Part shown: piece by piece, positions 162 to 13,743 of the stretch
How the letters are laid out: each line of letters begins with the position of its first letter
Position numbering within the stretch: the first letter of the stretch is position 1
Notes under the pieces: generated by a model
What the model saw: only the letters and a program-made list of their open reading frames with translations
Database searches by the model: none
What the model was told of the DNA's origin: nothing
From: Streptomyces sp. CNQ-509
GTDB lineage: Bacteria; Actinomycetota; Actinomycetes; Streptomycetales; Streptomycetaceae
Assembly: GCF_001011035.1 (NCBI RefSeq)
Contig: NZ_CP011492.1
Coordinates: 1,116,001 to 1,180,000 of the forward strand
Length of the DNA stretch: 64,000 nucleotides
Direction of reading: 5' to 3'
Position numbers and translations under genes: made by a program

Positions 162-2179
162 TGCTCGCCACCCTCGGGGGCCGCCAGAAGCTCGCGGAGC
201 GGCTGTCCCGGCCCGGCCTGCGGCTCCGCGGGCTCAGCCGGCTGCCCTGGACGTCCCGGATCTCGCTGGGCCTGCTCACCCTGGTGGTGCTGGTCGCGGT
301 CTTCGCGCCGCTGCTCGCCCCGCACGACCCGCTGGACCAGCAGGCGCAGGCCGGCGGCACCGGACACCCGTCCGCCGACCACTGGATGGGGCAGGACAGC
401 CTCGGCCGCGACATCCTCAGCCGGCTGATGTACGGGGCCCGCTGGTCGCTGATCATCGGGCTGGGCGCCACGCTGCTCGCGCTGGTCGCCGGGGCCGTGC
501 TCGGGGCGATCGCCGCCACCTCCCGCAAGGCGGTGGACGAGTTCGTCATGCGCTGCCTGGACATCGTCATGGCGTTCCCGGGGATCGCGCTGGCCGCGGT
601 GCTCGTCGCCGTCTTCGGCGGCAGCATCCCGGTGCTGGTGTGCGCCATCGCGTTCCTCTACGTGCCGCCGATCGCGCGGGTCGTCCGGGCCAACGTGCTG
701 GACCAGTACGGCGAGGACTACGTGACCGCGGAACGGGTCATCGGGGCCCGTACGCCGCACATCATCGTCAAGCACGTCGCCATCAACTGCGCCGCGCCGA
801 TCCTGGTGTTCTGCACCGTGCAGGTCGCCGAGGCGATCGTCTTCGAGGCGTCGCTGTCCTTCATCGGCGCGGGCGTCCGCCCGCCGGACCCGTCCTGGGG
901 CAGCGTCATCGCGGACGGCAAGAACATGGTGCTGCTCGGCGGCTGGTGGGCCACGGTCTTCCCGGGCCTGCTGATGCTGCTGACCGTGCTGGCGCTCAAC
1001 ATCCTCTCCGAGGGCATTTCGGACGCCTGGGCGGCGCCCGCCTCCCGGCGGTCCGAGAGCGTGGTGGTCAAGGAGGCCGGCGCCGAGGACCGGATCGAGG
1101 CCGCCGCGCCCGGCACCGGCAAGGTGCTGGAGCTGCCGGGTCTCACCGAGGCCGCGCGCAGGCTGCGCGAACGGGCCCGGCCGCTGCCCGGCGGCGAGCC
1201 GGTGCTGGCGGTGAGGGACCTGGCCATCGGCTTCGACCAGCGGCACGCGGGCGTGGACATCGTCGACGGCATCAGCTTCGACGTCAGGCCCGGCGAAGTC
1301 CTCGGCCTCGTCGGCGAGTCGGGCTGCGGCAAGTCGCTGACCGCGCTGACCGTGATGGGCCTGGAGCCGGCCGGCGCGCGGGTGCGCGGCAGCGTCGTCT
1401 TCGACGGCCGGGAGCTGGTCGGCCTGCCGATGCGGATACGCCGCAAGCTGCTCGGCCACGAGATGGCGATGATCTACCAGGACGCGCTCAGCTCGCTCAA
1501 TCCGGCGATGACGATCCGCGCCCAGCTCAAGCAGTTGATCCGGCGCGGCGGCACGCGCACCGCGACCGAACTGCTGGAGCTGGTGGGCCTGGACCCGGAA
1601 CGTACGCTGCGCAGCTATCCGCACGAGCTGTCCGGCGGGCAGCGGCAGCGGGTGCTCATCGCCATGGCGCTGTCGCGCAACCCGAAGCTCATCGTCGCCG
1701 ACGAGCCGACGACCGCGCTCGACGTCACGGTCCAGGCGCAGGTCATCGAGCTGCTGCTGCGGCTGCGCGAGGAGCTGGGCTTCGCGCTCATCCTGGTCAG
1801 CCACGACCTGGCGCTGATCTCCGACGTCACCGACCGGGTGGTCGTCATGTACGGGGGGCAGATCGTCGAGACCGGCGTCACCGCCGACCTCGTCGAGGCG
1901 CCCTCCCACCACTACACCCGCGGGCTGCTGGGCTCGGTGCTGTCGCTGGAGTCGGCCCAGGAGCGGCTGACGCAGATCCGCGGCGTCGTACCCTCCCCGG
2001 CCGACTTCCCGGCCGGCTGCCGGTTCGCCGACCGCTGCCCGATGGCGAGCGGCCGGTGTCTGGACACCGCGCCGGAACTGGTCGGCGAGGAACGCAAGCA
2101 CGAGGTGGCGTGCCACCACCCGGCGGTCGAGCCGGCGGTCGCCGCCGTGGGCGAGGCGGAGAAGGAGGCGCTGCGATGA
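161..2179 (+). CDS. Fused DppC-type permease and DppD-type ATPase of an oligopeptide-class ABC importer
   Basis: This 672-residue protein joins two usually separate subunits. Residues 1-295 are a membrane permease with several hydrophobic helices and the inner-membrane coupling region (residues around EDYVTAERVIGA). Residues about 347-590 are an ABC ATPase with Walker A GESGCGKS near 385, signature LSGGQRQRV near 490 and Walker B LIVADEPTTALD near 510. The C-terminal 60 residues carry the cysteine-containing oligopeptide-transporter tail (GCRFADRCPMASGRC). Such permease-ATPase fusions are known in actinobacteria. It is coupled by overlap to the permease before it and the ATPase after it. It should power import of peptides or, judging from the downstream aldolase and sialidase, possibly sialic acid; that substrate is inference. 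Confidence 0.9.
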   Translation: MLATLGGRQKLAERLSRPGLRLRGLSRLPWTSRISLGLLTLVVLVAVFAPLLAPHDPLDQQAQAGGTGHPSADHWMGQDSLGRDILSRLMYGARWSLIIGLGATLLALVAGAVLGAIAATSRKAVDEFVMRCLDIVMAFPGIALAAVLVAVFGGSIPVLVCAIAFLYVPPIARVVRANVLDQYGEDYVTAERVIGARTPHIIVKHVAINCAAPILVFCTVQVAEAIVFEASLSFIGAGVRPPDPSWGSVIADGKNMVLLGGWWATVFPGLLMLLTVLALNILSEGISDAWAAPASRRSESVVVKEAGAEDRIEAAAPGTGKVLELPGLTEAARRLRERARPLPGGEPVLAVRDLAIGFDQRHAGVDIVDGISFDVRPGEVLGLVGESGCGKSLTALTVMGLEPAGARVRGSVVFDGRELVGLPMRIRRKLLGHEMAMIYQDALSSLNPAMTIRAQLKQLIRRGGTRTATELLELVGLDPERTLRSYPHELSGGQRQRVLIAMALSRNPKLIVADEPTTALDVTVQAQVIELLLRLREELGFALILVSHDLALISDVTDRVVVMYGGQIVETGVTADLVEAPSHHYTRGLLGSVLSLESAQERLTQIRGVVPSPADFPAGCRFADRCPMASGRCLDTAPELVGEERKHEVACHHPAVEPAVAAVGEAEKEALR

Positions 2180-3315
2180 GCGCAAAGGACAGCGGCGGCC
2201 CGGGGTCGATCGGCGAGCTGGCCGGCGAGCCGCTGGTCGAGGGCGATGGGCTGGTCGAGGGCGGCGGTGCGCCGCCGGCGCTCGTCACCGTACGGAACGC
2301 GCATGTGGTGCACCGGGCGCGCACGGGCGGCCTGTTCGCCCGCGACCGGGTGTACGCGCTGACCGGCGCGGACCTGACGATCGCCGCGGGCGAGACGGTC
2401 GGCGTGGTCGGCGAGTCCGGCTGCGGCAAGTCGACGCTGGCGAAGGTGCTGGTCGGGGTGGAGGAACCGACGGCGGGCACGGTGGAGTTCCGGGGCCGCG
2501 ACATCTGGAAGATGGACGGCGGCGAGCGGCGTACGGCCATCGGCACCGGCGCGGGCATGATCTTCCAGGACCCGTCGACCGCCCTCAACCGGCGGCTGCC
2601 GATCCGGCAGATCCTCCGTGATCCGCTCGACGTGCACCACCGCGGCACGGCCGCCCAGCGCACCGAGCGGGTCCGGGAGCTGATGGCCCTCGTCGGCCTG
2701 CCGCCGGTGCTCGCGGACGCGCTGCCGGGCCAGTTGTCCGGCGGCCAGCGGCAGCGGGTGGCGATCGCCCGGGCACTGGCGCTGGAGCCGGACCTGGTGG
2801 TGGCCGACGAGCCGACGTCCGCACTGGACGTGTCCGTACGGGCGCAGATCCTCAACCTGCTGCTGGACCTGAAGGAGCGGCTGAACCTGGCGCTGGTGTT
2901 CGTCTCGCACGACATCCAGACGGTGCGGCGGATGAGCGACCGCGTCATCACCATGTACCTGGGCAGGATCGTGGAGGAGGCGCCGGCCGTCGCGCTGGGC
3001 TCCGGCGGCGACTCCCCGGCGGAACACAGCACGGACACCGCCCGGCACCCCTACACGCGGGCGCTGTTCTCGGCGACGCCGGGGCTCCTCGACCCCATCG
3101 ACCCGATCCCGCTCGCCGGCCCCGTGCCGTCGGCGACCCGGCCGCCGAGCGGCTGCCCGTTCCGTACCCGGTGCTGGAAGGCCACGGCGGAGTGCGCCGC
3201 GGCCATGCCGGAGGTCACGCAGGCGGCGCAGTCCCACCGGTTCCGCTGCCACCACCCGGTGGCCGCCGGGGAGAGCACCCGTGATCTCGTGATCCAAGCG
3301 AAGGAGAGCGCATGA
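2176..3315 (+). CDS. DppF/OppF-type ABC transporter ATPase
   Basis: A 379-residue ATPase, the second nucleotide-binding subunit of the importer. The start is the ATG overlapping the previous stop (ATGA). Walker A GESGCGKST is near residue 80, signature LSGGQRQRV near 187, Walker B LVVADEPTSALD near 205, H-loop VSHD follows, and the C-terminal tail again has the four-cysteine pattern of the family (GCPFRTRCWKATAEC). The first 35 residues are an Asp/Glu/Gly-rich extension of no clear role. It overlaps the aldolase gene that follows by four bases, so all four genes form one coupled operon. Confidence 0.9.
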   Translation: MSAKDSGGPGSIGELAGEPLVEGDGLVEGGGAPPALVTVRNAHVVHRARTGGLFARDRVYALTGADLTIAAGETVGVVGESGCGKSTLAKVLVGVEEPTAGTVEFRGRDIWKMDGGERRTAIGTGAGMIFQDPSTALNRRLPIRQILRDPLDVHHRGTAAQRTERVRELMALVGLPPVLADALPGQLSGGQRQRVAIARALALEPDLVVADEPTSALDVSVRAQILNLLLDLKERLNLALVFVSHDIQTVRRMSDRVITMYLGRIVEEAPAVALGSGGDSPAEHSTDTARHPYTRALFSATPGLLDPIDPIPLAGPVPSATRPPSGCPFRTRCWKATAECAAAMPEVTQAAQSHRFRCHHPVAAGESTRDLVIQAKESA

Positions 3316-4241
3316 CCCGTCCCACCCACCTGACCGGCGTCGTACCGCCCGTCTGCACCCCCCTGACGCCGGACGCCGAGGTGGACACCGCCTCGCTGAT
3401 CAGGCTGGTGGACTTCCTCGTGGCGGGGGGCGTCGACGGGCTCTTCGTGCTCGGCTCGTCCTCGGAGGCCGCCTACCTCAGGGACGAGCAGCGCAGGGCC
3501 GTGGTGGACACGGTGGTACGGCACGTCGGCGGCCAACTGCCCGTACTCGCCGGCGCGATCGACATGACGACGCCGCGCGTGCTCGACCACGCCCGCAGCG
3601 CGCTCGACGCCGGCGCGGACGCGCTCGTCGTCACCGCGCCGTTCTACACCCGCACCCACCCGGCGGAGATCGACCGGCACTTCCGCGAGGTCGCCGGCCG
3701 CACCGGCGCGCCGGTCTACGCCTACGACCTGCCGGTGTCCGTGCACACCAAGCTCGGCCACGACCTGGTGCTCCGGCTCGCCGCCGACGGGGTGCTGGCC
3801 GGGCTGAAGGACTCCAGCGGCGACGAGACGGGGCTGCGCCGCGTCATCGTCGGCGTCCGGGACAAGGTCGCGGGCTTCTCCGCGCTGACGGGCTCCGAGA
3901 CGATGGTGGACAGCGCGCTGGCGATGGGCGCCCACGGCGTCGTCCCGGGCCTGGGCAACGTCGACCCGCACGGCTACGTGCGGCTGTTCCGCAGCGCGCG
4001 GGAGGGCGACTGGGAGTCGGCCAGGACCGAACAGGAGCGGCTGCTCGCCCTCTTCGGGATGGTCAGGAGCGGCGACCCGGCGCGGATGGGCATGAGCTCG
4101 TCGGCGCTCGGGGCGTTCAAGGCGGCCCTGCATCTGCGCGGGGTCATCGACTGCCCGGCGACGATGCTGCCGCAGATCCCGCTGGACACCGAGGAGGTAC
4201 GGCGGGTGGAGAAGCACCTCGCCGCGGCGGGGCTGCGCTGA
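3312..4241 (+). CDS. DHDPS / N-acetylneuraminate lyase family class I aldolase
   Basis: A 309-residue TIM-barrel aldolase. It has the carboxylate-binding loop as GSSSE (48-52), the active-site tyrosine region VYAYDLP (135-141) and the Schiff-base lysine in GLKDSSG (K166). These spacings match both dihydrodipicolinate synthase and N-acetylneuraminate lyase, where the catalytic tyrosine and lysine are near 137 and 165. It cleaves or forms a 2-keto acid through a lysine imine. Being coupled by an ATGA overlap to an ABC importer and lying next to a sialidase, it is more likely catabolic (sialic acid to ManNAc plus pyruvate) than the lysine-pathway enzyme. Other 2-keto-3-deoxy sugar acids remain possible substrates. 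Confidence 0.85.
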   Translation: MTRPTHLTGVVPPVCTPLTPDAEVDTASLIRLVDFLVAGGVDGLFVLGSSSEAAYLRDEQRRAVVDTVVRHVGGQLPVLAGAIDMTTPRVLDHARSALDAGADALVVTAPFYTRTHPAEIDRHFREVAGRTGAPVYAYDLPVSVHTKLGHDLVLRLAADGVLAGLKDSSGDETGLRRVIVGVRDKVAGFSALTGSETMVDSALAMGAHGVVPGLGNVDPHGYVRLFRSAREGDWESARTEQERLLALFGMVRSGDPARMGMSSSALGAFKAALHLRGVIDCPATMLPQIPLDTEEVRRVEKHLAAAGLR

Positions 4242-4261
4242 CGGGGCTCCGGTGCCGTACG

Positions 4262-4312
4262 CCGGCGGGAGGGGCGGGCCAGGGGATGGCCCGGCGCCCT
4301 CCCGCCGGTTTT
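4262..4312 (+). terminator. Rho-independent terminator after the importer/aldolase operon
   Basis: A long GC-rich hairpin follows the aldolase stop by 20 bases. The left arm begins CCGGCGGGAGGG and the right arm ends CCCTCCCGCCGG, with additional GGGCC/GGCCC pairing inside, followed by TTTT. This is a textbook intrinsic terminator for the + strand operon. Confidence 0.75.
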
Positions 4313-4382
4313 CTGCTCCCCCGGCGGCGACCGGCCGGCCGCCAGGCACCGCCGGTCGCCGCCGGGGGCGTCAGCCGCCCAG

Positions 4383-4490
4383 GCCCTGTCTGGCACATAG
4401 CGCCGTCCGCCCTCTGGGCGGGCTCCCCCACAGCGCGCAAGCGCGCGTGGGCGGTACCCCCAGACGCAGGCGGGATTTGTCAGACAAGGC
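4383..4490. mobile_element. MITE-like element copy 1 (108 bp) at the sialidase 3' end
   Basis: Ends are inverted: the left end is GCCCTGTCTGGCA and the right end, read inward on the other strand, is GCCTTGTCTGACA. It is flanked by CCAG and CGAG, possibly decayed CTAG duplications. The core holds a strong hairpin (CCCAC, GCGCGC, short loop, GCGCGC, GTGGG). The copy at 63029-63137 is nearly the same sequence in the opposite orientation. The right end contains the sialidase stop codon, so the last residues (GLV) and stop of that gene come from the element's terminal repeat. It has no coding capacity. Confidence 0.7.
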
Positions 4491-5703
4491 CGAGGTTCCG
4501 CAGGTCCAGGCGGCGGAACTCGATGGTCTCGTACGACCCGGCCGCGCCCGTCTCGTACAGGACCCCGATCGTCTGGCCGTTGACCTGCACCAGGTCCGAG
4601 TACGCCGCCGGCTGCTGCGACAGCGTCGTCACCTTGGTGAAGTTGCGCCCGGCGTCGTCGCTGCGCCAGACCGCCAGCTTCTCGCGCTTGGCGGGGTTCG
4701 AGGGCCCGGAGAAGAGCAGCGGCGCGTGCCGGCCCACGGGCTGGAGCACGCTCGCCTGGACGACCGGCACCTCGTCGAGGTCCGGCTGCACCCGGTACGG
4801 CCGGTCGAGGGTCGCGCCGCCGTCGCTGGAGTAGGCGTCGAGGCGGTTGCCGGGAGAGGTGCCGTTCTGGTCGCGGGTGCTGAAGTACAGGCGGCCGTCG
4901 GGCAGTTCGGCGGCGATGTTCTCGTTGCTGTTGATCTCGCCCTCGTACTCGTCGTCGACGAAGCCCATCTTCCAGGAGCGGCCGCCGTCGTCGCTGTAGA
5001 TGGCGTGGGCGCCGTAGTACCGGGCCTCCTGCCCGGTGTCCGCGGAGCCGGCCGGCGGGGCGGTGGAGTGGTTCGAGGGGATGACGAGCCGGCCGCGGTT
5101 CGGCCCCTGCTTGAGGGCGACGGCGTGGCCGGGACCGGTCGCGTACCAGCGCCACTGCGGCAGCTTGACGTCGGCGGTGATCTCCCGCGGCGCGTCGAAC
5201 GTGCGGCCGTCGTCGGTGGAGCGCTGCACGAAGACCCGCCGGCTCTGCTCGGCGGTGACCTCGCCGCGCATGATCTGCGCCTCGGTGACCTTACCGCTGT
5301 TGTACGAGGTGACGAGCACCAGGTCGCCGGTCTCCGGGTCGACGACGGGCGCCGGGTTGCCGCGGGTGTCGCCGCCGCCCGCGGCGACGACGGACATCGG
5401 GCCCCAGGTGCAGCCGCCGTCCTCGGAGCGGCGGACGACGACGTCGATGTTGCCGGTGTCCCCGGCGCCGCCGACGCGGCCCTCGGCGAAGGCGAGGAGG
5501 GAGCCGCCGCGGGTCTTCACGGTGGCGGGGATGCGGTACGTGTCGTAGCCGCCCTCGCCGGATCTGTAGGGGACGGAGGACGTGCAGCGGGCCTGGCCGG
5601 ACGCCGTGGCCCCGGCGTCGGCCGCCGCCGTGCCGGGGCCCGCGGCCAGGGTGCCGAGCAGGGCGGTCGCGGAGAGGAAGAGGAGGCTTGTCGAGGTGCG
5701 CAT
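4480..5703 (-). CDS. Secreted exo-alpha-sialidase (neuraminidase, BNR repeats)
   Basis: A 407-residue secreted protein with a signal peptide (hydrophobic run 6-21, cleavage near the AAADA region). It has the YRIP motif at 56-59, supplying the first arginine of the catalytic triad. Five Asp-boxes follow: SEDGGCTW (93), STDDGRTF (162), SDDGGRSW (237), SSDGGATL (292) and SDDAGRNF (348). The Glu region NENIAAELPDG is near 260-270, and the AYSDL segment near the end would carry the nucleophilic tyrosine. It should release terminal sialic acids from glycoconjugates outside the cell. It converges on the importer/aldolase operon. The extreme C-terminus is encoded by a mobile element terminus. Confidence 0.92.
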   Translation of the reverse strand: MRTSTSLLFLSATALLGTLAAGPGTAAADAGATASGQARCTSSVPYRSGEGGYDTYRIPATVKTRGGSLLAFAEGRVGGAGDTGNIDVVVRRSEDGGCTWGPMSVVAAGGGDTRGNPAPVVDPETGDLVLVTSYNSGKVTEAQIMRGEVTAEQSRRVFVQRSTDDGRTFDAPREITADVKLPQWRWYATGPGHAVALKQGPNRGRLVIPSNHSTAPPAGSADTGQEARYYGAHAIYSDDGGRSWKMGFVDDEYEGEINSNENIAAELPDGRLYFSTRDQNGTSPGNRLDAYSSDGGATLDRPYRVQPDLDEVPVVQASVLQPVGRHAPLLFSGPSNPAKREKLAVWRSDDAGRNFTKVTTLSQQPAAYSDLVQVNGQTIGVLYETGAAGSYETIEFRRLDLRNLGLV

Positions 5704-5721
5704 GCGGCGACTCCGAAGTCA

Positions 5722-5743
5722 TGGGACGTAGGAGGTGGGATGT
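5722..5743. promoter_or_regulatory. Direct repeat upstream of the sialidase (candidate operator)
   Basis: TGGGACGT and TGGGATGT are repeated 14 bases apart, 19-40 bases before the sialidase ATG. Three GATCGCA-type sequences also lie in this 231-base divergent region (around 5746, 5804 and 5836). These could be sites for a sugar-responsive repressor, but no regulator gene adjoins them, so the assignment is tentative. Confidence 0.3.
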
Positions 5744-5934
5744 CCGATCGCAAAACGTAGAGGGCGCGGCGGCCCGAGGCAAGACCCCGGACGCCGGGAA
5801 AGATCGCACCAACGCACGGGAGTCCAGGTGTTCGTGTGCGATCGTGAGCGGGAATCGAGCCTGTTGGACAGGGGAAACGGGCCCCGGGAGGCGCGGACAC
5901 CGAGCGGGCGGAACGGGCAGGCGGAGGAGGCCGG

Positions 5935-7146
5935 GTGGCGAGCACGGGCGAGATACGGCGGGCGCGGTACGCCGTCGCGGCGGTGTTCGCCGCGCACGGC
6001 GCGGTCACCGGCAGCTTCGCCACCCGGGTCCCCTGGGTGCAGGACCACGCCGGGATCAGCGCCGGGCAGCTCGGTCTCGCGCTCGCCATGCCCGCCCTCG
6101 GTGCCGCCAGCGCGATGCCGCTCGCCGGCCGGATCAGCCACACCTTCGGCGCCCGCCGCGCGCTGCGCGGGCTGATGGTCATGTGGTGTCTCGCGCTGGT
6201 GCTGCCGGCCCTCGCGCCCGGGCTCGCGACGCTCTGCGCGGGCCTGTTCGTGTACGGCGCGACCGCCGGCATGGCGGATGTCGCGATGAACGCGCTCGGC
6301 GTCGACGTGGAACAGCGGCTCGGCCGCTCGATCATGTCCGGGCTGCACGGCATGTGGAGCGGCGGCGCGCTCGCGGGCTCCGCGGCCGGCACCGTCGCCG
6401 CGCACACCGAGCTGGACGGCCGGGTGCACTTCGCGCTCGCCGCCGCCGTCCTCACCGCGGTCTCGGCCGTCGCCTGCCGCTGGGTGCTGGAGCCCGTCGC
6501 GCACGCCGACGAGGAGCCGCCGCCGCACTTCGCGCTGCCACCGCGCTCGGCGCTGCTCATCGGCGCGGTCGGGTTCTGCGCGGTGTTCGCCGAGGGCGCC
6601 AGCCTGGACTGGTCGGCGGTCTACCTGCGCGACGAGATGGGCTCCTCCCCCGGCCTCGCCGCCGCGTGCACCACGGGCTTCGCGCTGACGATGGCGGTGG
6701 CCCGGCTGGTGGGCGACGCGGTCGTCGAACGCCTCGGCCCGGTGCGCACGGTGCGCGCGGGCGGGATGCTGGCGACGCTCGGCGGGGTGCTCATCGTCAC
6801 CTCGTCCGCCGCGGCGCAGGCGATGGCCGGGTTCGGGCTGCTGGGGCTGGGCATCGCGGTCGTCGTGCCGGTGGTCTTCGCGGCGGCGGCCCGGTCCGCC
6901 CACGCGCCGAGCCAGGCGATCGCGGGGGTGGCGACAATCATGTACGCCTCCGGGCTGATCGCCCCGGCGGCGATCGGGCAGGTCGCCGACGCGACGTCGC
7001 TGACCGTGTCGTTCGGGCTGGTGACCGTGCTGGCCACCGGGCTCATCGCGGGCGCGGGGCTGCTGCGCGGGCAGCGCTCAAAGACGCGGGCCAAGGCGCC
7101 CGGCGCCGTACCGGATCCGGCGCCCGCGCCGGGCACGGACATGTAG
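5935..7146 (+). CDS. MFS transporter (YbjJ-like)
   Basis: A 403-residue integral membrane protein with about twelve hydrophobic segments and little polar sequence outside the central loop (DEEPPPHFALPPRS). The loop GRISHTFGARRAL near residue 65 corresponds to the conserved MFS loop 2-3. The GTG start is preceded by GGAGGAGG at good spacing. The sequence is of the YbjJ/fucose-permease-like branch, in which SLDWSAVYLRD begins the second half. Substrate unknown; efflux of a small metabolite is the usual guess. It stands alone between the sialidase and the FAD dehydrogenase and converges with the latter. Confidence 0.85.
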   Translation: MASTGEIRRARYAVAAVFAAHGAVTGSFATRVPWVQDHAGISAGQLGLALAMPALGAASAMPLAGRISHTFGARRALRGLMVMWCLALVLPALAPGLATLCAGLFVYGATAGMADVAMNALGVDVEQRLGRSIMSGLHGMWSGGALAGSAAGTVAAHTELDGRVHFALAAAVLTAVSAVACRWVLEPVAHADEEPPPHFALPPRSALLIGAVGFCAVFAEGASLDWSAVYLRDEMGSSPGLAAACTTGFALTMAVARLVGDAVVERLGPVRTVRAGGMLATLGGVLIVTSSAAAQAMAGFGLLGLGIAVVVPVVFAAAARSAHAPSQAIAGVATIMYASGLIAPAAIGQVADATSLTVSFGLVTVLATGLIAGAGLLRGQRSKTRAKAPGAVPDPAPAPGTDM

Positions 7147-7172
7147 GCGGGTGGCCGAGCCCGTACGGGCCC

Positions 7173-8828
7173 TCAGCCCACCGCCTTCGCCGCCGCGCGG
7201 CCCGCGGCCCGGCCGGAGAAGAGGCACCCGCCGAGGAACGTGCCCTCCAGCGCGCGGTACCCGTGGACGCCGCCCCCGCCGAAGCCGGCGGCCTCCCCGG
7301 CCGCGTACACGCCCGGCAGCGGCTCCCCGCCCTCGGCGAGCACCCGCGAGGACAGGTCCGTCTCCAGCCCGCCGAGGGACTTGCGGGTGAGGATGTTCAG
7401 CCGTACGGCGATGAGGGGGCCGTTCTTCGGGTCCAGGAAGCGGTGCGGGGAGGCGGCGCGGATGAGCTTGTCGCCGAGGAAGTTGCGGGCGCCGCGGAGG
7501 GCGGTGATCTGCATGTCCTTCGTGTAGGCGTTGTCGATCTCGCGGTCGCGGGCGGTGAGCGTGCGGCGCAGCGCCTCCTCGTCGATGAGCTTGTCGCCGG
7601 TCAGCTCGTTCATCCTGCGGACCAGGGTGGCGAGGTCGCGTTCGACGATGAAGTCGACGCCGTTGTCCATGAACGCCTGCACGGGCGCGGGCGCCCCGGA
7701 GCCGGCCCGGCCCAGCACGTCGCGGACGCTCTTGCCGGTCAGGTCCGGGTTCTGCTCGCTGCCGGAGAGCGTGAACTCCTTCTCGATGACCTTCTGGCTG
7801 AGGACGAACCAGGTGTAGCCGTGGCCCGACTTCATGATGTGCTCCAGCGTGCCGAGCGTGTCGAAGCCCGGGAACAGCGGCACCGGCAGCCGGCGGCCGG
7901 TCGCGTCCAGCCACAGCGACGAGGGTCCCGGCAGGATCCGGATGCCGTGCCGGGCCCAGATGGGGTTCCAGTTCTCGATGCCCTCGGTGTAGTGCCACAT
8001 CCGGTCGCGGTTGATGAGCCGGCCGCCCGCCGCCCCGGCGACGTCGAGCAGCAGCCCGTCGACGTGCGCGGGGACGCCGGAGAGCAGCTTCTCCGGCGGG
8101 GTGCCGAGCCGCTCCGGCCAGTGGGCGCGGACGAGGTCGTGGTTGCCGCCGATGCCGCCGGAGGTGATGATCACCGCCTGGGCGCGCAGCTCGAAGGTGT
8201 CGGCCACCTCCCGGCCGCTCGCGGTGCCGCGCGGGGCGTCGCTGGGTTCGAGGATGTCGCCGGTGACGGTGTCGACGGCGCCGCCGCTGCGGGCCAGCCC
8301 GGTGACGCGGTGCCGGAAGCGCATGTCGACGCGGCCGAGTTCCGCGGCCTCGCGCACCCGCCGCTCGAAGGGGGCGACGACGCCGGGCCCCGTGCCCCAG
8401 GTGATGTGGAAGCGGGGTACGGAGTTGCCGTGGCCCTCCGCGTCGTAGCCGCCGCGCTCGGCCCAGCCGACGACCGGGAAGAACGACATGCCCTGGGCGC
8501 GCAGCCAGGCGCGCTTCTCGCCGCTGGCGAAGTCGACGTACGCCTCGGCCCACTTGCGCGGCCAGTGGTCCTCGGCGCGGTCGAAGCCCGCGGTGCCGAG
8601 CCAGTCCTGCCAGGCCAGCTCGCGGCTGTCGCGGATGCGCAGCCGGCGCTGCTCGGGCGAGCCGACGAAGAACAGGCCGCCGAAGGACCAGTGCGCCTGG
8701 CCGCCGAGAGCCTGTTCCGGCTCCTGGTCCAGCAGGATGACCTTGCGTCCCGCGTCGGCCAGCTCCGCGGTCGCGGCGAGTCCTGCGAGCCCCGCTCCGA
8801 TCACGATGACGTCGGCGTCGTAGACCAT
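7173..8828 (-). CDS. FAD-binding dehydrogenase (KsdD / fumarate-reductase flavoprotein type)
   Basis: A 551-residue flavoprotein. The start chosen (MVYDADVIVIG) places the dinucleotide-binding motif VIGAGLAGLAA at residues 8-18, as usual for the family; a longer reading frame upstream has no homology. The C-terminal GEAAGFGGGGVHGYRALEG closes the FAD-binding domain. Members oxidise steroid or fatty ring compounds or act as ketosteroid dehydrogenase-like enzymes; the exact substrate is not evident. The sequence ACCGGTCGGT lies 23-32 bases upstream of the start and recurs at two other promoters in this window, suggesting control by the TetR protein at 13807-14400. Confidence 0.85.
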   Translation of the reverse strand: MVYDADVIVIGAGLAGLAATAELADAGRKVILLDQEPEQALGGQAHWSFGGLFFVGSPEQRRLRIRDSRELAWQDWLGTAGFDRAEDHWPRKWAEAYVDFASGEKRAWLRAQGMSFFPVVGWAERGGYDAEGHGNSVPRFHITWGTGPGVVAPFERRVREAAELGRVDMRFRHRVTGLARSGGAVDTVTGDILEPSDAPRGTASGREVADTFELRAQAVIITSGGIGGNHDLVRAHWPERLGTPPEKLLSGVPAHVDGLLLDVAGAAGGRLINRDRMWHYTEGIENWNPIWARHGIRILPGPSSLWLDATGRRLPVPLFPGFDTLGTLEHIMKSGHGYTWFVLSQKVIEKEFTLSGSEQNPDLTGKSVRDVLGRAGSGAPAPVQAFMDNGVDFIVERDLATLVRRMNELTGDKLIDEEALRRTLTARDREIDNAYTKDMQITALRGARNFLGDKLIRAASPHRFLDPKNGPLIAVRLNILTRKSLGGLETDLSSRVLAEGGEPLPGVYAAGEAAGFGGGGVHGYRALEGTFLGGCLFSGRAAGRAAAKAVG

Positions 8829-8850
8829 GGCTGCCGCCCCTCCGAAGGTT

Positions 8851-8860
8851 ACCGGTCGGT
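8851..8860. promoter_or_regulatory. TetR-type operator, site C (before the FAD dehydrogenase)
   Basis: ACCGGTCGGT here is the exact reverse complement of ACCGACCGGT at 11417-11426 and identical to 15292-15301. The surrounding bases (TTACCGGTCGGTTCA) form an imperfect palindrome typical of TetR-family sites. Confidence 0.55.
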
Positions 8861-8979
8861 TCAGATCCTGTTGACCGGGCGCCCGCCCGTCAACCGCCGG
8901 ACGCCGGCCACTTTCCCCGCCCGCGGGCGGGGCGGGTCGGCCGCGGGGTGCGCGGGGGCGTTCGGTTAGGGTCGAGGCC

Positions 8980-9378
8980 GTGAGCGACCCGGAACGTCCG
9001 TCCGCCGTGCGGTTGTGGTTCTCGCCCCGGCGGCTGCGTGCCGAGGGCCGCACCCCGGACTACCGCTTCTCGCTCGCCAACGAGCGGACGTTCCTCGCCT
9101 GGGTGCGGACCGCGCTGGCGCTCGTCGGCGGCGGCATCGCCGCGGACCAGTTCCTCACCGAGATGTCCCGCCCCTTCCGTACGGCCATCGCCGCCGTGCT
9201 GCTCGCGGGCGGGGCGGTGTGCGCGGTTCGCGCCGTCAACCACTGGATCCGCTGCGAGCGCGCGATGCGCCGCGGCGAGGACCTGCCGGAGTCCCGCTTC
9301 CCCGGACTGCTCGCCGTGGGCACGGCGGTGGCGGCGGCGGTGCTGATCGTCGTGGTGCTGGTCGGGGCCGGGCGGTGA
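8980..9378 (+). CDS. DUF202 (YidH-type) membrane protein
   Basis: A 132-residue protein starting with GTG. It contains the DUF202 hallmark LANERTFLAWVRTALAL at residues 30-46, followed by two more hydrophobic helices, giving three in all. DUF202 proteins are small bacterial and fungal membrane proteins (YidH) without a proven biochemical role. A four-base overlap (GTGA) couples it to a second, shorter DUF202 gene. Confidence 0.85.
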   Translation: MSDPERPSAVRLWFSPRRLRAEGRTPDYRFSLANERTFLAWVRTALALVGGGIAADQFLTEMSRPFRTAIAAVLLAGGAVCAVRAVNHWIRCERAMRRGEDLPESRFPGLLAVGTAVAAAVLIVVVLVGAGR

Positions 9379-9683
9379 GCGGCGCCCGGGACCCCGGGGC
9401 GCAGCCGGAGCGGACGCGCCTCGCGTGGCGGCGTACGACGCTGGCGTTCGCGGTCGTGGTGGTGCTGGAGCTGCGTCGGGTGGTCGTCGAGGGGGGCTCC
9501 GCGGGCGGGTACGCGGGGCTGTCGCTGGCGCTGTGCACGTGGCTGGTGTTCCTGGCGGTGGGCCAGCGGCGGATAAAACAACTGGCCGCCGCCGCACCGG
9601 CGGCGATGGCGCCGGGCCTGGCGCTGGGCGCGGGCCTGTGCCTGGTGGCGTCCGCGACGTCCGCGGCCGTGCTGCTCATCTGA
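9375..9683 (+). CDS. Second DUF202-family membrane protein
   Basis: A 102-residue membrane protein starting with the GTG that overlaps the stop of its neighbour. PERTRLAWRRTTLAF at residues 10-24 is a diverged DUF202 signature, and two further hydrophobic segments follow. The pair resembles tandem DUF202 genes seen in other actinobacteria and may form a heteromeric membrane complex; this is inference from coupling and similarity only. Confidence 0.8.
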   Translation: MSGARDPGAQPERTRLAWRRTTLAFAVVVVLELRRVVVEGGSAGGYAGLSLALCTWLVFLAVGQRRIKQLAAAAPAAMAPGLALGAGLCLVASATSAAVLLI

Positions 9684-9835
9684 CGCCGCCGTGGCCGCCG
9701 TCCGCACGCTCCCGTCCGAACGCCCCGCGTCCGCTTCCGGGTCGCCGACGGGCCGCCGTCCCCGCCCGCGCCCGGTCCTAAGCTCGCAGGCGGCACCGCG
9801 GTGCGGGCAGGAGTTGTCGTGAGGGGGGCATGCGC

Positions 9836-11203
9836 ATGGGCGTCACCGTGCCGCTGATCGTCGTGATGGGGGTGTCCGGCTGCGGCAAGACCACGGTGGG
9901 CCGGGAGCTGGCCGAGCGGCTGAACGTGCCGTACGCGGACGGCGCCGACATCGGCCGGGAGGCCGGCCTCTCCCCCGCCCTCGGCGAGCCGTCCGACGAG
10001 GCCGTCGCCGGCTGGCTCCGCAGACGGGCCGCGAGCGGCGGCGTCGTCAGCAGGCCCGCGCTGCGCCGCCGCGACCGCGACCGGCTCGCGGCGGCCGTGC
10101 CGGGGCTGTACTTCCTCCATCTGGACGGCTCGCGGCACCTCGTCGGCGCCCGGCTGGCCGAGCGCAAGGAGCTGTTCGTGCCGCACGACGTCCTGGACGC
10201 CCAGTTCGCCGCGCTCGAACCGCTGGCGCCCGACGAGCACGGGGCGGCGGTCGGCATCGACGGCACCCCAGCGCAGATCGTGGACCGCGCGGTCGACGCC
10301 GCGCGCACGCCGTACAGCGTGCAGCTCGCCACCGGCGTGCACGCCTACATCCAGCCGGACGGCGGCTGGTGCCTGAGCAACGCGGGCTTCGTCAGCGACG
10401 GCACGACGACGCTGCTCGTCGACACCGCCGCCACCGAGCCCCGGGCGAAGCTGCTGCGGGAGGCGGTCCTGGCCAGCGGGGCGCCCGACCCGGCGCTCGT
10501 GGTCAACACCCACCACCACGGCGACCACACGTACGGCAACAGCGTCTTCGCCCCCGCCACGGTCGTCGGCCACGCCGCGTGCCGGCAGCAGGTGCTCGCG
10601 GCGGGGCGCCATCTGGAGCTGCTGTGGCCGGAGGTGGAGTACGGGGACGTGCGGCTGACGGCGCCGGGCATGACGTACACGGAGTCGATGACGCTGACCG
10701 CGGGCGGCACGGAGGTCCGGCTGCTGCACCCGGGCCCCGCGCACACGGTCGGCGACACGGTGGTGTGGCTGCCGGAGCAGCGGGTCGTCTTCGCCGGGGA
10801 CATAGCGCTCTGCGGCGGTACGCCGTTCGTCGCGTTCGGCTCGCTCGGGGGGTCGCTGCGGGCGCTGGAGCACCTGCGGTCGCTGGGCGCGGAGACGGTG
10901 GTGCCGGGGCACGGTCCGGTGACGGACGCGGGCGTGTTCGACGCGGTGGAGCGGTATCTGCGGTACGTCGGCGAGCTTGCCGCGCAGGGGCGCGCGGCGG
11001 GCCGGACGCCGCTGGAGACGGCGCGGGCCGCGGACCCGGAGGCGTTCGCGGAACTGCGGGAGCCGGAGCGGCTGGTGGCGAACCTGCACCGGGCGTACAG
11101 CGAGCTGGCGGGCGAGCCGGAGGGCCGGCCGCTGGACGCGGCGGCGTACTTCGCGGACATGGCGGCGCTGAACGGCGGCAAGATGATGCCCTGTCACGCG
11201 TAG
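9836..11203 (+). CDS. Fusion: gluconokinase-like P-loop domain plus metallo-beta-lactamase-fold hydrolase
   Basis: One 455-residue frame contains two enzymes. Residues 1-155 look like a gluconokinase: P-loop GVSGCGKTTVG near residue 11, and a C-terminal half matching the family (LRRRDRDRL, HLDG, RLAERKELFVPHDVLDAQFA, LEPL). The substrate-binding middle is shortened, and the usual FADGD-D stretch reads YADGADIG. From about 162 (YSVQLATGVHAYIQPDGG) it is a metallo-beta-lactamase fold with THHHGDHTYGN near 223, HTVGDTV and GHGPV for metal binding. There is no stop or obvious boundary between them. I chose ATG 9836 because GAGGGGGG lies 8 bases upstream; ATG 9830 is possible. Whether the kinase half is active is doubtful. 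Confidence 0.8.
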   Translation: MGVTVPLIVVMGVSGCGKTTVGRELAERLNVPYADGADIGREAGLSPALGEPSDEAVAGWLRRRAASGGVVSRPALRRRDRDRLAAAVPGLYFLHLDGSRHLVGARLAERKELFVPHDVLDAQFAALEPLAPDEHGAAVGIDGTPAQIVDRAVDAARTPYSVQLATGVHAYIQPDGGWCLSNAGFVSDGTTTLLVDTAATEPRAKLLREAVLASGAPDPALVVNTHHHGDHTYGNSVFAPATVVGHAACRQQVLAAGRHLELLWPEVEYGDVRLTAPGMTYTESMTLTAGGTEVRLLHPGPAHTVGDTVVWLPEQRVVFAGDIALCGGTPFVAFGSLGGSLRALEHLRSLGAETVVPGHGPVTDAGVFDAVERYLRYVGELAAQGRAAGRTPLETARAADPEAFAELREPERLVANLHRAYSELAGEPEGRPLDAAAYFADMAALNGGKMMPCHA

Positions 11204-11493: not shown

Positions 11494-12513
11494 ATGAGCG
11501 ACGACCACCCGCCCGGCCTCGACCCCGACGCGCTGCGCCGGCACCTCGACGCGCAGCTCCCCGGGCTCGTCCGCGGCGGGCTCCGCGCCCGGCTCGTCGA
11601 GGGCGGCAGGTCCAATCTCACGTACGACGTCACCGACGGCACCGGCCGCTGGGTCGTCCGACGCCCCCCGCTCGGCCATGTCCTCGCCACCGCCCACGAC
11701 ATGGCCCGCGAGCACCGCGTGCTCACCGCCCTGCACCCCACCCCCGTCCCCGTACCGCGGACCCTGCTCCTCTGTACCGACGAGACCGTGCTCGGCGCCC
11801 CCTTCTACGTCATGGAATACGTCCCCGGCACCGTCTACCGCACCGCGGGGCAACTCGCGCCGCTCGGCCCCGCGCGCACCCGCGCCGTGGTCGAAGGACT
11901 CGTCGACACCCTGGTCCGCCTCCACGAGGTCGACCCGGCCGAAGCCGGCCTAGCCGGCTTCGGCCGTCCCGACGGCTTCCTGGAACGCCAGCTCCGCCGC
12001 TGGGGCAAGCAGCTCGACGCCTCCCGCAGCCGCGAGCTGCCCGGCATCGACGAGCTGCACGACGCCCTCGCCCGCGACCTGCCGCCCGCCGCCGCACCCG
12101 CCGTCGTCCACGGCGACTACCGCCTCGACAACGTCCTCGTCGACGCCGCCGGCACCGTGACCGCCGTCCTGGACTGGGAGATGTCGACGCTCGGCGACCC
12201 GCTCACGGACCTCGGCCTGCTCGCCATGTACAGCGCCCCCGCCGGCGCCGACTCCCCCATCGCCACCACCGCGGACGCCCCGGGGCACCCGGCCGCCGCC
12301 GAGATCGTCGCCCGCTACGCCGCGCGGTCCGGCCGCGACGTCTCCCGCGTCGCGTGGTACACGGCCTTCGCGTACTTCAAGCTCGCCGTGATCCTGGAGG
12401 GCATCCACTACCGCTTCACGCTCGGCCAGACCGTCGGCGCCGGCTTCGACCGCATCGGCGAACTCGTGCCCCGCTTCATCGCGGGCGGCCGCACCACTCT
12501 GCAGGAAGGCTGA
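11494..12513 (+). CDS. Phosphotransferase (APH / choline-kinase fold), acyl-CoA dehydrogenase partner
   Basis: A 339-residue kinase-fold protein. GGRSNLTYDV (residues 34-43) is the glycine-rich loop, VVHGDYRLDNVLV near 205 carries the catalytic Asp and Asn, and VLDWEMSTLGDPLTDLG near 225 carries the metal-binding Asp. This is the APH family subgroup that occurs beside, or fused to, acyl-CoA dehydrogenases (as in ACAD10/ACAD11), where it phosphorylates 4-hydroxy acyl-CoAs. The next gene, six bases downstream, is such a dehydrogenase, which supports that role. A TetR palindrome precedes the operon. Confidence 0.85.
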   Translation: MSDDHPPGLDPDALRRHLDAQLPGLVRGGLRARLVEGGRSNLTYDVTDGTGRWVVRRPPLGHVLATAHDMAREHRVLTALHPTPVPVPRTLLLCTDETVLGAPFYVMEYVPGTVYRTAGQLAPLGPARTRAVVEGLVDTLVRLHEVDPAEAGLAGFGRPDGFLERQLRRWGKQLDASRSRELPGIDELHDALARDLPPAAAPAVVHGDYRLDNVLVDAAGTVTAVLDWEMSTLGDPLTDLGLLAMYSAPAGADSPIATTADAPGHPAAAEIVARYAARSGRDVSRVAWYTAFAYFKLAVILEGIHYRFTLGQTVGAGFDRIGELVPRFIAGGRTTLQEG

Positions 12514-12519
12514 CCGGCC

Positions 12520-13743
12520 ATGGACTTCGCACCCGACGCGCGCACCGAGGAACTGCGCGAGCGCCTGCTCGCGTTCATGACCGAGCACGTCCTCCCCGCC
12601 GAGCCCGTCGCCGCCGCGCAGCTCGCCGGGGAAGACGACCCGTGGGCGCACCCGCCCGTCGTGGCCGAGCTGCGTGCCGAAGCGCGCAGGCGCGGGCTGT
12701 GGAACCTCTTCCTCCCCGACACCGTGTACGGGGCGGGCCTGACGAACCTGCAGTACGCGCCGCTCGCCGAGATCACCGGCCGCAGCCCGCACCTGGCGCC
12801 GCTGGCCCTCAACTGCAGCGCGCCGGACACCGGGAACATGGAGCTGCTGGCCCAGTTCGCCACCCCGGAGCAGCGCGCGCGGTGGCTGGAGCCGCTGCTG
12901 GAGGGGCGTATCCGCTCGGCGTTCGCGATGACCGAGCCGGCCGTCGCCTCCTCCGACGCCACGAACATCGAGACCAGGATCGAGCGGGACGGCGACTCGT
13001 ACGTCCTCGACGGCCGCAAGTGGTACATCTCCGGGGCGATGAACCCCGACTGCGCCGTGTTCATCGTCATGGGCAAGACCGACCCGCACGGCACCGATCT
13101 CCGCCGCCAGCAGTCCATGGTCCTCGTCCCGCGCGACACCCCCGGCCTCACCGTCCGCCGGGCCATGCGCGTCTACGGCTTCGAGGACCGTCTGCACGGC
13201 GGCCACGCCGAGATCGTGCTCGACGGCGTACGGGTCCCGGCGGCGAACCTCGTCGGCGAGGAAGGCGGCGGCTTCGCCATCGCGCAGGCGCGGCTGGGTC
13301 CCGGCCGCATCCACCACTGCATGCGGCTGATCGGCATGGCGGAGCGGGCGATCGAGCTGATGTGCCGGCGGGCGGTGGAGCGTTCGGCGTTCGGCAAGGA
13401 GCTGGCGCGGCAGGGCGTGGTGCAGACGTGGATCGCGGACGCGCGGGTGGCGGTGGAGCAGTTGCGGCTGCTGGTGCTGAAGACCGCGTGGCTGATGGAC
13501 ACGGTCGGCAACCGCGGCGCGCACACCGAGATCCAGGCCATCAAGATCGCCGTGCCGCGGGAGGTCACCGGCATCCTGGACCGCGCCGTCCAGTTGCACG
13601 GCGCGGCGGGCGTCAGTCAGGACACGCCGCTGGCCGAGCTGTGGGCGTCGGCGCGCACGCTGCGGCTGGCGGACGGGCCCGACGAGGTGCACCAGCGGTC
13701 GCTGGCCCGGCGCGAGCTGCGGAAGTACGCGCGGGGCGGGTGA
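12520..13743 (+). CDS. Acyl-CoA dehydrogenase (ACAD10/11-like)
   Basis: A 407-residue flavoenzyme of the usual family length. It has FAMTEPAVASSDATNI near 139 (first acyl-CoA dehydrogenase signature), the middle beta domain, and C-terminal helices with RSAFGKELARQGVVQ and QLHGAAGVSQDTPL. It should introduce a double bond into an acyl-CoA, passing electrons to ETF. Only six bases separate it from the APH-like kinase gene, so both are co-transcribed. The pairing suggests oxidation of hydroxylated or branched acyl-CoAs. Confidence 0.9.
   Translation: MDFAPDARTEELRERLLAFMTEHVLPAEPVAAAQLAGEDDPWAHPPVVAELRAEARRRGLWNLFLPDTVYGAGLTNLQYAPLAEITGRSPHLAPLALNCSAPDTGNMELLAQFATPEQRARWLEPLLEGRIRSAFAMTEPAVASSDATNIETRIERDGDSYVLDGRKWYISGAMNPDCAVFIVMGKTDPHGTDLRRQQSMVLVPRDTPGLTVRRAMRVYGFEDRLHGGHAEIVLDGVRVPAANLVGEEGGGFAIAQARLGPGRIHHCMRLIGMAERAIELMCRRAVERSAFGKELARQGVVQTWIADARVAVEQLRLLVLKTAWLMDTVGNRGAHTEIQAIKIAVPREVTGILDRAVQLHGAAGVSQDTPLAELWASARTLRLADGPDEVHQRSLARRELRKYARGG

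What the first reader, a model, noticed from the sequence alone, without database searches (positions are those of the whole stretch)
9836..11203. Gluconokinase-like domain fused to a metallo-beta-lactamase-fold hydrolase
The N-terminal 155 residues keep the P-loop and C-terminal half of gluconokinase but have lost part of the substrate-binding middle, while the MBL half looks intact. I do not recognise this pairing as a described enzyme. It might couple nucleotide-dependent binding to hydrolysis, or the kinase half may have become a regulatory domain.
Basis: partly seen in the sequence, partly recalled or inferred. Interest (0 to 1): 0.6.

Follow-up and report, generated by a model that had tools for sequence, protein, structure and literature searches.

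The report
Dead gluconokinase fused to metallo-hydrolase
In one small group of Streptomyces (S. aculeolatus and its kin) two neighbouring genes, a sugar-acid kinase and a zinc hydrolase, have merged into one protein whose kinase half has lost its sugar site but is still kept by selection; the join is real, and it gives a rare before-and-after view of how a two-domain protein arose, though what it does is not yet known.

Summary
Window 9836-11203 is one uninterrupted reading frame that joins a GntK-type gluconokinase domain to an MBL-fold hydrolase. It is not a sequencing artefact: five independently sequenced genomes carry it at identical length, and a sixth holds its 5' end at a contig end. 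It is confined to the S. aculeolatus clade (3 of 393 Streptomyces genomes searched). Elsewhere the same MBL is a separate gene.

The origin was reconstructed. Genome G413 holds the unfused order DUF202-DUF202-gntK'-MBL-APH-ACAD, with the two genes adjacent, co-directional and in the same frame. The join removed the gntK' stop, the spacer and the variable MBL N-terminus.

The kinase half keeps the P-loop and lid arginines. It has lost 20 of the 50 positions conserved in 43 intact kinases, mostly in the gluconate-binding segment. After fusion that segment drifts at the neutral rate while the rest of the domain is under strong purifying selection. The MBL half keeps all seven metal ligands.

Best reading: an active metallo-hydrolase carrying a pseudo-gluconokinase as a nucleotide-binding or dimerising accessory domain. 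A complete gluconokinase gene survives elsewhere. Nucleotide binding, regulation and the hydrolase substrate are inferred, not shown.

The parts
9836..11203 (+). fused gene, 455 aa, stop included; mechanical ORF starts at 9830
   Evidence: start 9836 conserved in all five full-length members
9836..10297 (+). GntK-like (pseudo-gluconokinase) domain, aa 1-154
   Evidence: TIGR01313; predicted fold pLDDT 89.5, pTM 0.86; best structural matches are gluconate kinases 4eun, 1ko1, 1knq, 3t61, Z 19-20
9869..9892 (+). P-loop GVSGCGKT (aa 12-19), with Lys18; Thr20 follows at 9893-9895
   Evidence: invariant in the five fusions; K18 and T20 43/43 in intact kinases
9944..10015 (+). degenerated gluconate-site segment (aa 37-60), site of a 9-aa deletion; evolves at about the neutral rate
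10151..10168 (+). lid region with Arg106 and Arg110 kept (aa 106-111); Gly112 and His113 next to it replaced by Glu and Leu
10298..11200 (+). MBL-fold hydrolase domain (aa 155-455)
   Evidence: PF00753; predicted fold matches 8d2z Z 34.4 (284 aligned, rmsd 2.2) and chlorothalonil dehalogenase 6uxu Z 30.4
10511..10528 (+). HHHGDH metal motif (His226, His228, Asp230, His231); other ligands His303, Asp322, His359
   Evidence: 33-34 of 34 homologues
8980..9378 (+). DUF202 gene a, conserved upstream neighbour
9375..9683 (+). DUF202 gene b, conserved upstream neighbour
11494..12513 (+). APH-family phosphotransferase, conserved downstream neighbour
   Evidence: PF01636 E 6.6e-59
12520..13743 (+). acyl-CoA dehydrogenase, conserved downstream neighbour

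Best explanation
Two adjacent, co-directional Streptomyces genes, a gluconokinase paralogue (gntK') and an MBL-fold hydrolase, were joined in frame in an ancestor of the S. aculeolatus clade by loss of the gntK' stop codon, the spacer and the variable N-terminal tail of the MBL (shown by comparison with G413). The kinase half then lost its acceptor (gluconate) site and catalytic residues (shown at sequence level), so it very probably no longer phosphorylates gluconate (inferred). It is kept by selection as a folded P-loop domain (shown), most likely as a nucleotide-binding and/or dimerising accessory domain (inferred) for the MBL half, which keeps a complete metal site and should be the active hydrolase (inferred). 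Its likely chemistry is hydrolysis of an acyl thioester or ester, by analogy with the MBL thioesterase group of ActIV, MrqD and NftF1 and with its APH/ACAD neighbours (weakly inferred). The gluconokinase reaction itself is covered by a complete gntK elsewhere in the genome (gene shown, activity inferred).
For: Fusion at identical length in five genomes. Unfused gntK'-MBL pair in the same position and frame in G413, and gntK' alone in that position in G113, G256, G237, G112. Loss of 20 of 50 conserved kinase positions, including Asp37, His40, Ser74, Tyr80 and His113, each 43/43 in intact kinases; K18, T20, R81, R106, R110, Q123, E134 kept. Outside the lost segment nonsynonymous changes are far below the neutral expectation (5.5 vs 20.1 and 12.5 vs 26.1, 0 of 400 simulations as low); inside it they equal that expectation (9.0 vs 9.2, 12.5 vs 12.7). 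Confident kinase fold despite the deletion. Complete MBL metal site. Complete gntR-gntK-gntP set at 4.35 Mb in G000.
Against: No binding or activity data. Purifying selection could act only on folding or solubility of the fused protein. The phylogeny alone cannot place the kinase half (long branch, p-AU 0.18 with gntK' and 0.45 with gnt-operon kinases). The hydrolase substrate is a guess: the MBL is below every curated NCBIfam cut-off.
Confidence: 0.7

Rival explanations
1. The kinase half is a passive remnant: a folded N-terminal cap or dimerisation module with no ligand. Selection only keeps it from misfolding.
For: Acceptor site lost and drifting. GntK-type kinases are generally dimeric (own knowledge). 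Not enough time may have passed to lose the domain: members are still 92-98% identical.
Against: The P-loop and lid residues needed for phosphate binding but not for folding (K18, T20, R106, R110) are invariant in all five fusions; with only five close members this is weak evidence.
Confidence: 0.3
2. True bifunctional enzyme: the kinase half has a new acceptor and still transfers phosphate, perhaps to a product or substrate of the MBL half.
For: P-loop, lid arginines and Q123 kept. Some kinases accept new substrates after changes in exactly this segment (own knowledge).
Against: The Asp that closes the DxD motif (43/43 in intact kinases) is Ala or Glu, and the segment that would form a new acceptor site evolves at the neutral rate and varies among the five members.
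Confidence: 0.12
3. The MBL is also, or only, made from an internal start, so the fusion is partly nominal.
For: In-frame GTG codons lie near the junction.
Against: No ribosome site precedes those codons by inspection, whereas the unfused MBL of G413 has a purine-rich stretch before its ATG. The kinase half shows no stop or frameshift in five genomes.
Confidence: 0.08
4. Sequencing or assembly artefact.
For: None found.
Against: Same 1374-nt frame in five separately sequenced genomes, with codon-position signal of a translated protein.
Confidence: 0.01

Closest known systems
GntK/IdnK-type gluconokinase (TIGR01313; structures 1knq, 1ko5, 3t61, 4eun; SCO1679 in S. coelicolor)
   Same: Fold, P-loop, lid arginines, 36-56% identity to intact Streptomyces and other actinobacterial kinases
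   Different: 9-residue deletion and loss of DxD Asp, HPxxN, KMxxGxPLxDxDRxPW, Ser-Ala-Leu Ser, Tyr and GHF; scores below the family cut-off; fused to an MBL
Standalone Streptomyces MBL between DUF202 and APH/ACAD genes (for example L002, L125), and the MBL in a type II PKS locus (L091)
   Same: 67-70% identity (L091 59%), same metal ligands, same gene neighbourhood for the first group
   Different: They are separate proteins without a kinase domain
MBL-fold thioesterase/cyclase group ActIV, MrqD, NftF1 (PMC10265476)
   Same: MBL fold with THxHxDH motif; one 59% relative of the window protein lies next to a ketosynthase-like and a carrier-protein gene
   Different: Direct sequence comparison with ActIV was not made; the window locus is not a PKS cluster
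LvaA/LvaC and ACAD10/ACAD11 4-hydroxyacyl-CoA pathway (PMC11342911)
   Same: Adjacent APH-type kinase and acyl-CoA dehydrogenase genes
   Different: No MBL is part of that pathway; orthology of the window APH and ACAD to LvaA and LvaC was not tested

Membership tests
GntK-type gluconokinase (TIGR01313) | score above the curated cut-off (113.75 bits) | tested here: not met
   81.5-86.1 bits; unfused gntK' of G413 scores 177.3
GntK-type gluconokinase (TIGR01313) | P-loop for ATP phosphate binding | tested here: met
   GVSGCGKT, K18 and T20 invariant
GntK-type gluconokinase (TIGR01313) | DxD / HPxxN / KMxxGxPLxDxDRxPW acceptor-site segment | tested here: not met
GntK-type gluconokinase (TIGR01313) | gluconate kinase activity | not testable with these tools
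   needs an assay
P-loop kinase fold (gluconate kinase type) | predicted fold matches solved gluconate kinases | tested here: met
   Z 18.6-20.3, rmsd 2.5-2.6, 148-156 aligned
Metallo-beta-lactamase superfamily (PF00753) | score above cut-off and complete HxHxDH...H...D...H ligand set | tested here: met
   91.7 bits vs 22.7; ligands; fold Z 34.4 to 8d2z
True beta-lactamase (class B) | score above the NCBIfam subclass cut-offs | tested here: not met
   63.9 bits vs 200 for subclass B1
ActIV/MrqD/NftF1 MBL thioesterase group | orthology to, or direct similarity with, a characterised member | not tested
   only indirect: a 59% relative beside KS-like and carrier-protein genes and the literature

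The most novel reading that the evidence does not exclude
A nucleotide-gated metallo-hydrolase: ATP or ADP bound to a pseudo-gluconokinase domain switches or tunes the MBL half, so a dead metabolic kinase has been recruited as a built-in energy-charge sensor.
Probability: 0.25. Interest if true: 0.6.

Novelty: new variant of a known kind. Interest (0 to 1): 0.4.

Why it matters
Both halves belong to well-known families, but I found no description of this pairing, and its history can be read step by step: unfused neighbours, in-frame join, decay of one active site, and selection keeping the rest. If nucleotide binding proves to control the hydrolase, it would be a clear case of a metabolic kinase turned into a regulatory domain inside one clade. 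If not, it is still a clean, datable example of gene fusion followed by pseudoenzyme formation.

Tried and rejected
(1) Fusion by deletion between the canonical gnt-operon gntK and MBL: first suspected because both lie within 4-21 kb in several relatives, rejected as a simple event because the DUF202 genes that lie between them are intact upstream of the fusion; the DUF202-adjacent gntK' explains it better. (2) Kinase tree: could not place the fused kinase; neither grouping rejected. Signature residues (HLDGS, IDGT rather than HLTGD, VDVSG) favour gntK'. (3) Apparent longer matches in G075 and G748 were read and have no kinase upstream; those in G461 and G724 carry stops. No second fusion in 393 Streptomyces or 394 class-level genomes at the thresholds used; a very divergent one could be missed. 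(4) Large joint alignments (A1, A4) put kinases against the MBL half and were discarded; the 17-row A2 and the kinase-only A3 were used. (6) Literature search for gluconokinase plus MBL fusion: one hit, not inspected further, which mentions each term once.

Full report
Observation. The frame 9830-11203 on the + strand is open throughout. Its first 156 codons match TIGR01313, GntK-type gluconokinase, with E 5.6e-23 but a score below the family cut-off. The rest matches PF00753, the MBL superfamily, with E 7.4e-26. Residue numbers below count from 9836 (455 aa) unless stated.

Distribution. In 393 genomes of the genus, 199 have a strong match, but only G000, G071 (98% identity) and G129 (95%) match over the full length; in the others the match begins near residue 114-165, that is, at the MBL. 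A named-genome scan with the kinase half found S. aculeolatus DSM 41644, Streptomyces sp. CNH099 and a contig end of S. phytophilus. The five complete copies have the same length and no stop or frameshift. The relation of the unnamed G genomes to the named ones is not known, except that G074 holds the same 3529-base contig layout as S. phytophilus. S. aculeolatus belongs to the MAR4 clade (PMC10897937). In 394 genomes drawn across the class no further fusion appeared.

Origin. In most relatives the order is FAD dehydrogenase, DUF202a, DUF202b, MBL, APH, ACAD, with the canonical gntR-gntK-gntP operon further upstream where present. In the window clade a kinase sits between DUF202b and the MBL, so a simple deletion between the gnt operon and the MBL cannot explain it. 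Four other genomes (G113, G256, G237, G112) have a full-length gntK paralogue, gntK', directly after DUF202b and no MBL there. G413 has both: DUF202b, gntK', MBL, APH, ACAD, with gntK' and MBL co-directional, in the same frame, and separated by the gntK' stop, a spacer and a variable MBL tail. The fused protein lacks exactly those parts. I infer that an in-frame deletion joined the two genes. The kinase tree does not settle which kinase group is the parent, because the fused branch is long (about 1.06 changes per column; p-AU 0.18 for gntK', 0.45 for the gnt operon). Position and signature residues (HLDGS, IDGT) favour gntK'.

State of the kinase half. Among 43 intact kinases, 50 positions are at least 90% conserved. 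The fusion keeps 30 and loses 20. Kept: the P-loop Lys18 and Thr20, Arg78, Arg81, the lid arginines 106 and 110, Gln123 and Glu134. Lost: Asp37 of the DxD motif, His40, Asn44, five deleted positions of KMxxGxPL, Asp47, Asp49, Arg50, Trp53, Leu54, and outside that segment Ser74, Tyr80, Asp82 (in one member), Gly112, His113 and Leu119. That this segment binds the acceptor sugar and that the DxD Asp is catalytic is established knowledge of this kinase fold, not tested here. AlphaFold gives a confident domain (pLDDT 89.5, pTM 0.86) whose best matches are gluconate kinases (Z up to 20.3), so the fold survives the deletion.

Selection. Pairwise comparisons among the fused copies were set against random mutations drawn from the fourfold-site spectrum. 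Outside the lost segment, nonsynonymous changes are far below expectation (5.5 against 20.1 for G000-G129; 12.5 against 26.1 for L069-L070; none of 400 simulations as low). Inside it (residues 37-60) they equal it (9.0 against 9.2; 12.5 against 12.7); in the third pair, G000-L069, they are somewhat below it (6.0 against 9.2, 9 of 400). The MBL half is also constrained. So the domain is maintained, but not as a gluconate binder. This does not separate nucleotide binding from mere folding.

MBL half. All seven metal ligands (His226, His228, Asp230, His231, His303, Asp322, His359) are present and nearly invariant in 34 homologues. The model matches 8d2z (function not stated in the entry title) with Z 34.4, and chlorothalonil dehalogenase 6uxu with Z 30.4. 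It is far below cut-offs for true beta-lactamases. One 59% relative (L091) lies beside a ketosynthase-like protein and a carrier protein, which recalls the MBL thioesterases ActIV, MrqD and NftF1 (PMC10265476). The downstream APH and acyl-CoA dehydrogenase pair recalls LvaA/LvaC and ACAD10/11, which handle 4-hydroxyacyl-CoAs (PMC11342911). Together these make an acyl thioester or lactone a reasonable first guess for the substrate, no more.

Gluconate metabolism is not lost: G000 has a complete GntK (186 bits) with gntR-like and gntP-like neighbours at 4.35 Mb.

Verdict. The finding is real and correctly described. It is a clade-specific fusion of two adjacent genes of known families, with a pseudo-gluconokinase half. 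The regulatory reading is plausible but open. I found no description of this architecture in the library searched, which does not show that none exists.

Noticed in passing
L154 (G413) 6569-8511: Unfused gntK' and MBL in tandem between DUF202b and APH: the apparent pre-fusion state.
   Followed up: yes
window 3312-5703: A DapA/NanA-family gene beside a weakly scoring neuraminidase-like gene on the opposite strand; the neuraminidase-like gene is present in L069, L070, G071 and G129 too. Possibly sialic-acid use.
   Followed up: partly
window 11494-13743: APH-family kinase next to an acyl-CoA dehydrogenase, conserved across Streptomyces, resembling the LvaA/LvaC (ACAD10/11) pair for 4-hydroxyacyl-CoAs.
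   Followed up: partly
window 7173-8969: FAD-binding dehydrogenase far above the cut-off of NF009472 (972.8 vs 476 bits); its ortholog-like matches occur in 375 of 393 Streptomyces genomes.
   Followed up: no
L126, L127, L133, L135, L137, L138, L140, L144, L145, L146: A further set of intact GntK-like kinases in Streptomyces that lie neither in a gnt operon nor next to DUF202 within the 1.5 kb flanks read.
   Followed up: no
L091 (G748) 4331-5188: MBL relative (59%) directly after a ketosynthase-like gene and a carrier-protein gene, suggesting a thioesterase or cyclase role in a type II PKS locus.
   Followed up: partly
L159 (G143) 1526-5975: ACAD and DUF202 matches are split between frames and the MBL match carries a TAG, which looks like local sequence errors or decay in that assembly.
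   Followed up: no
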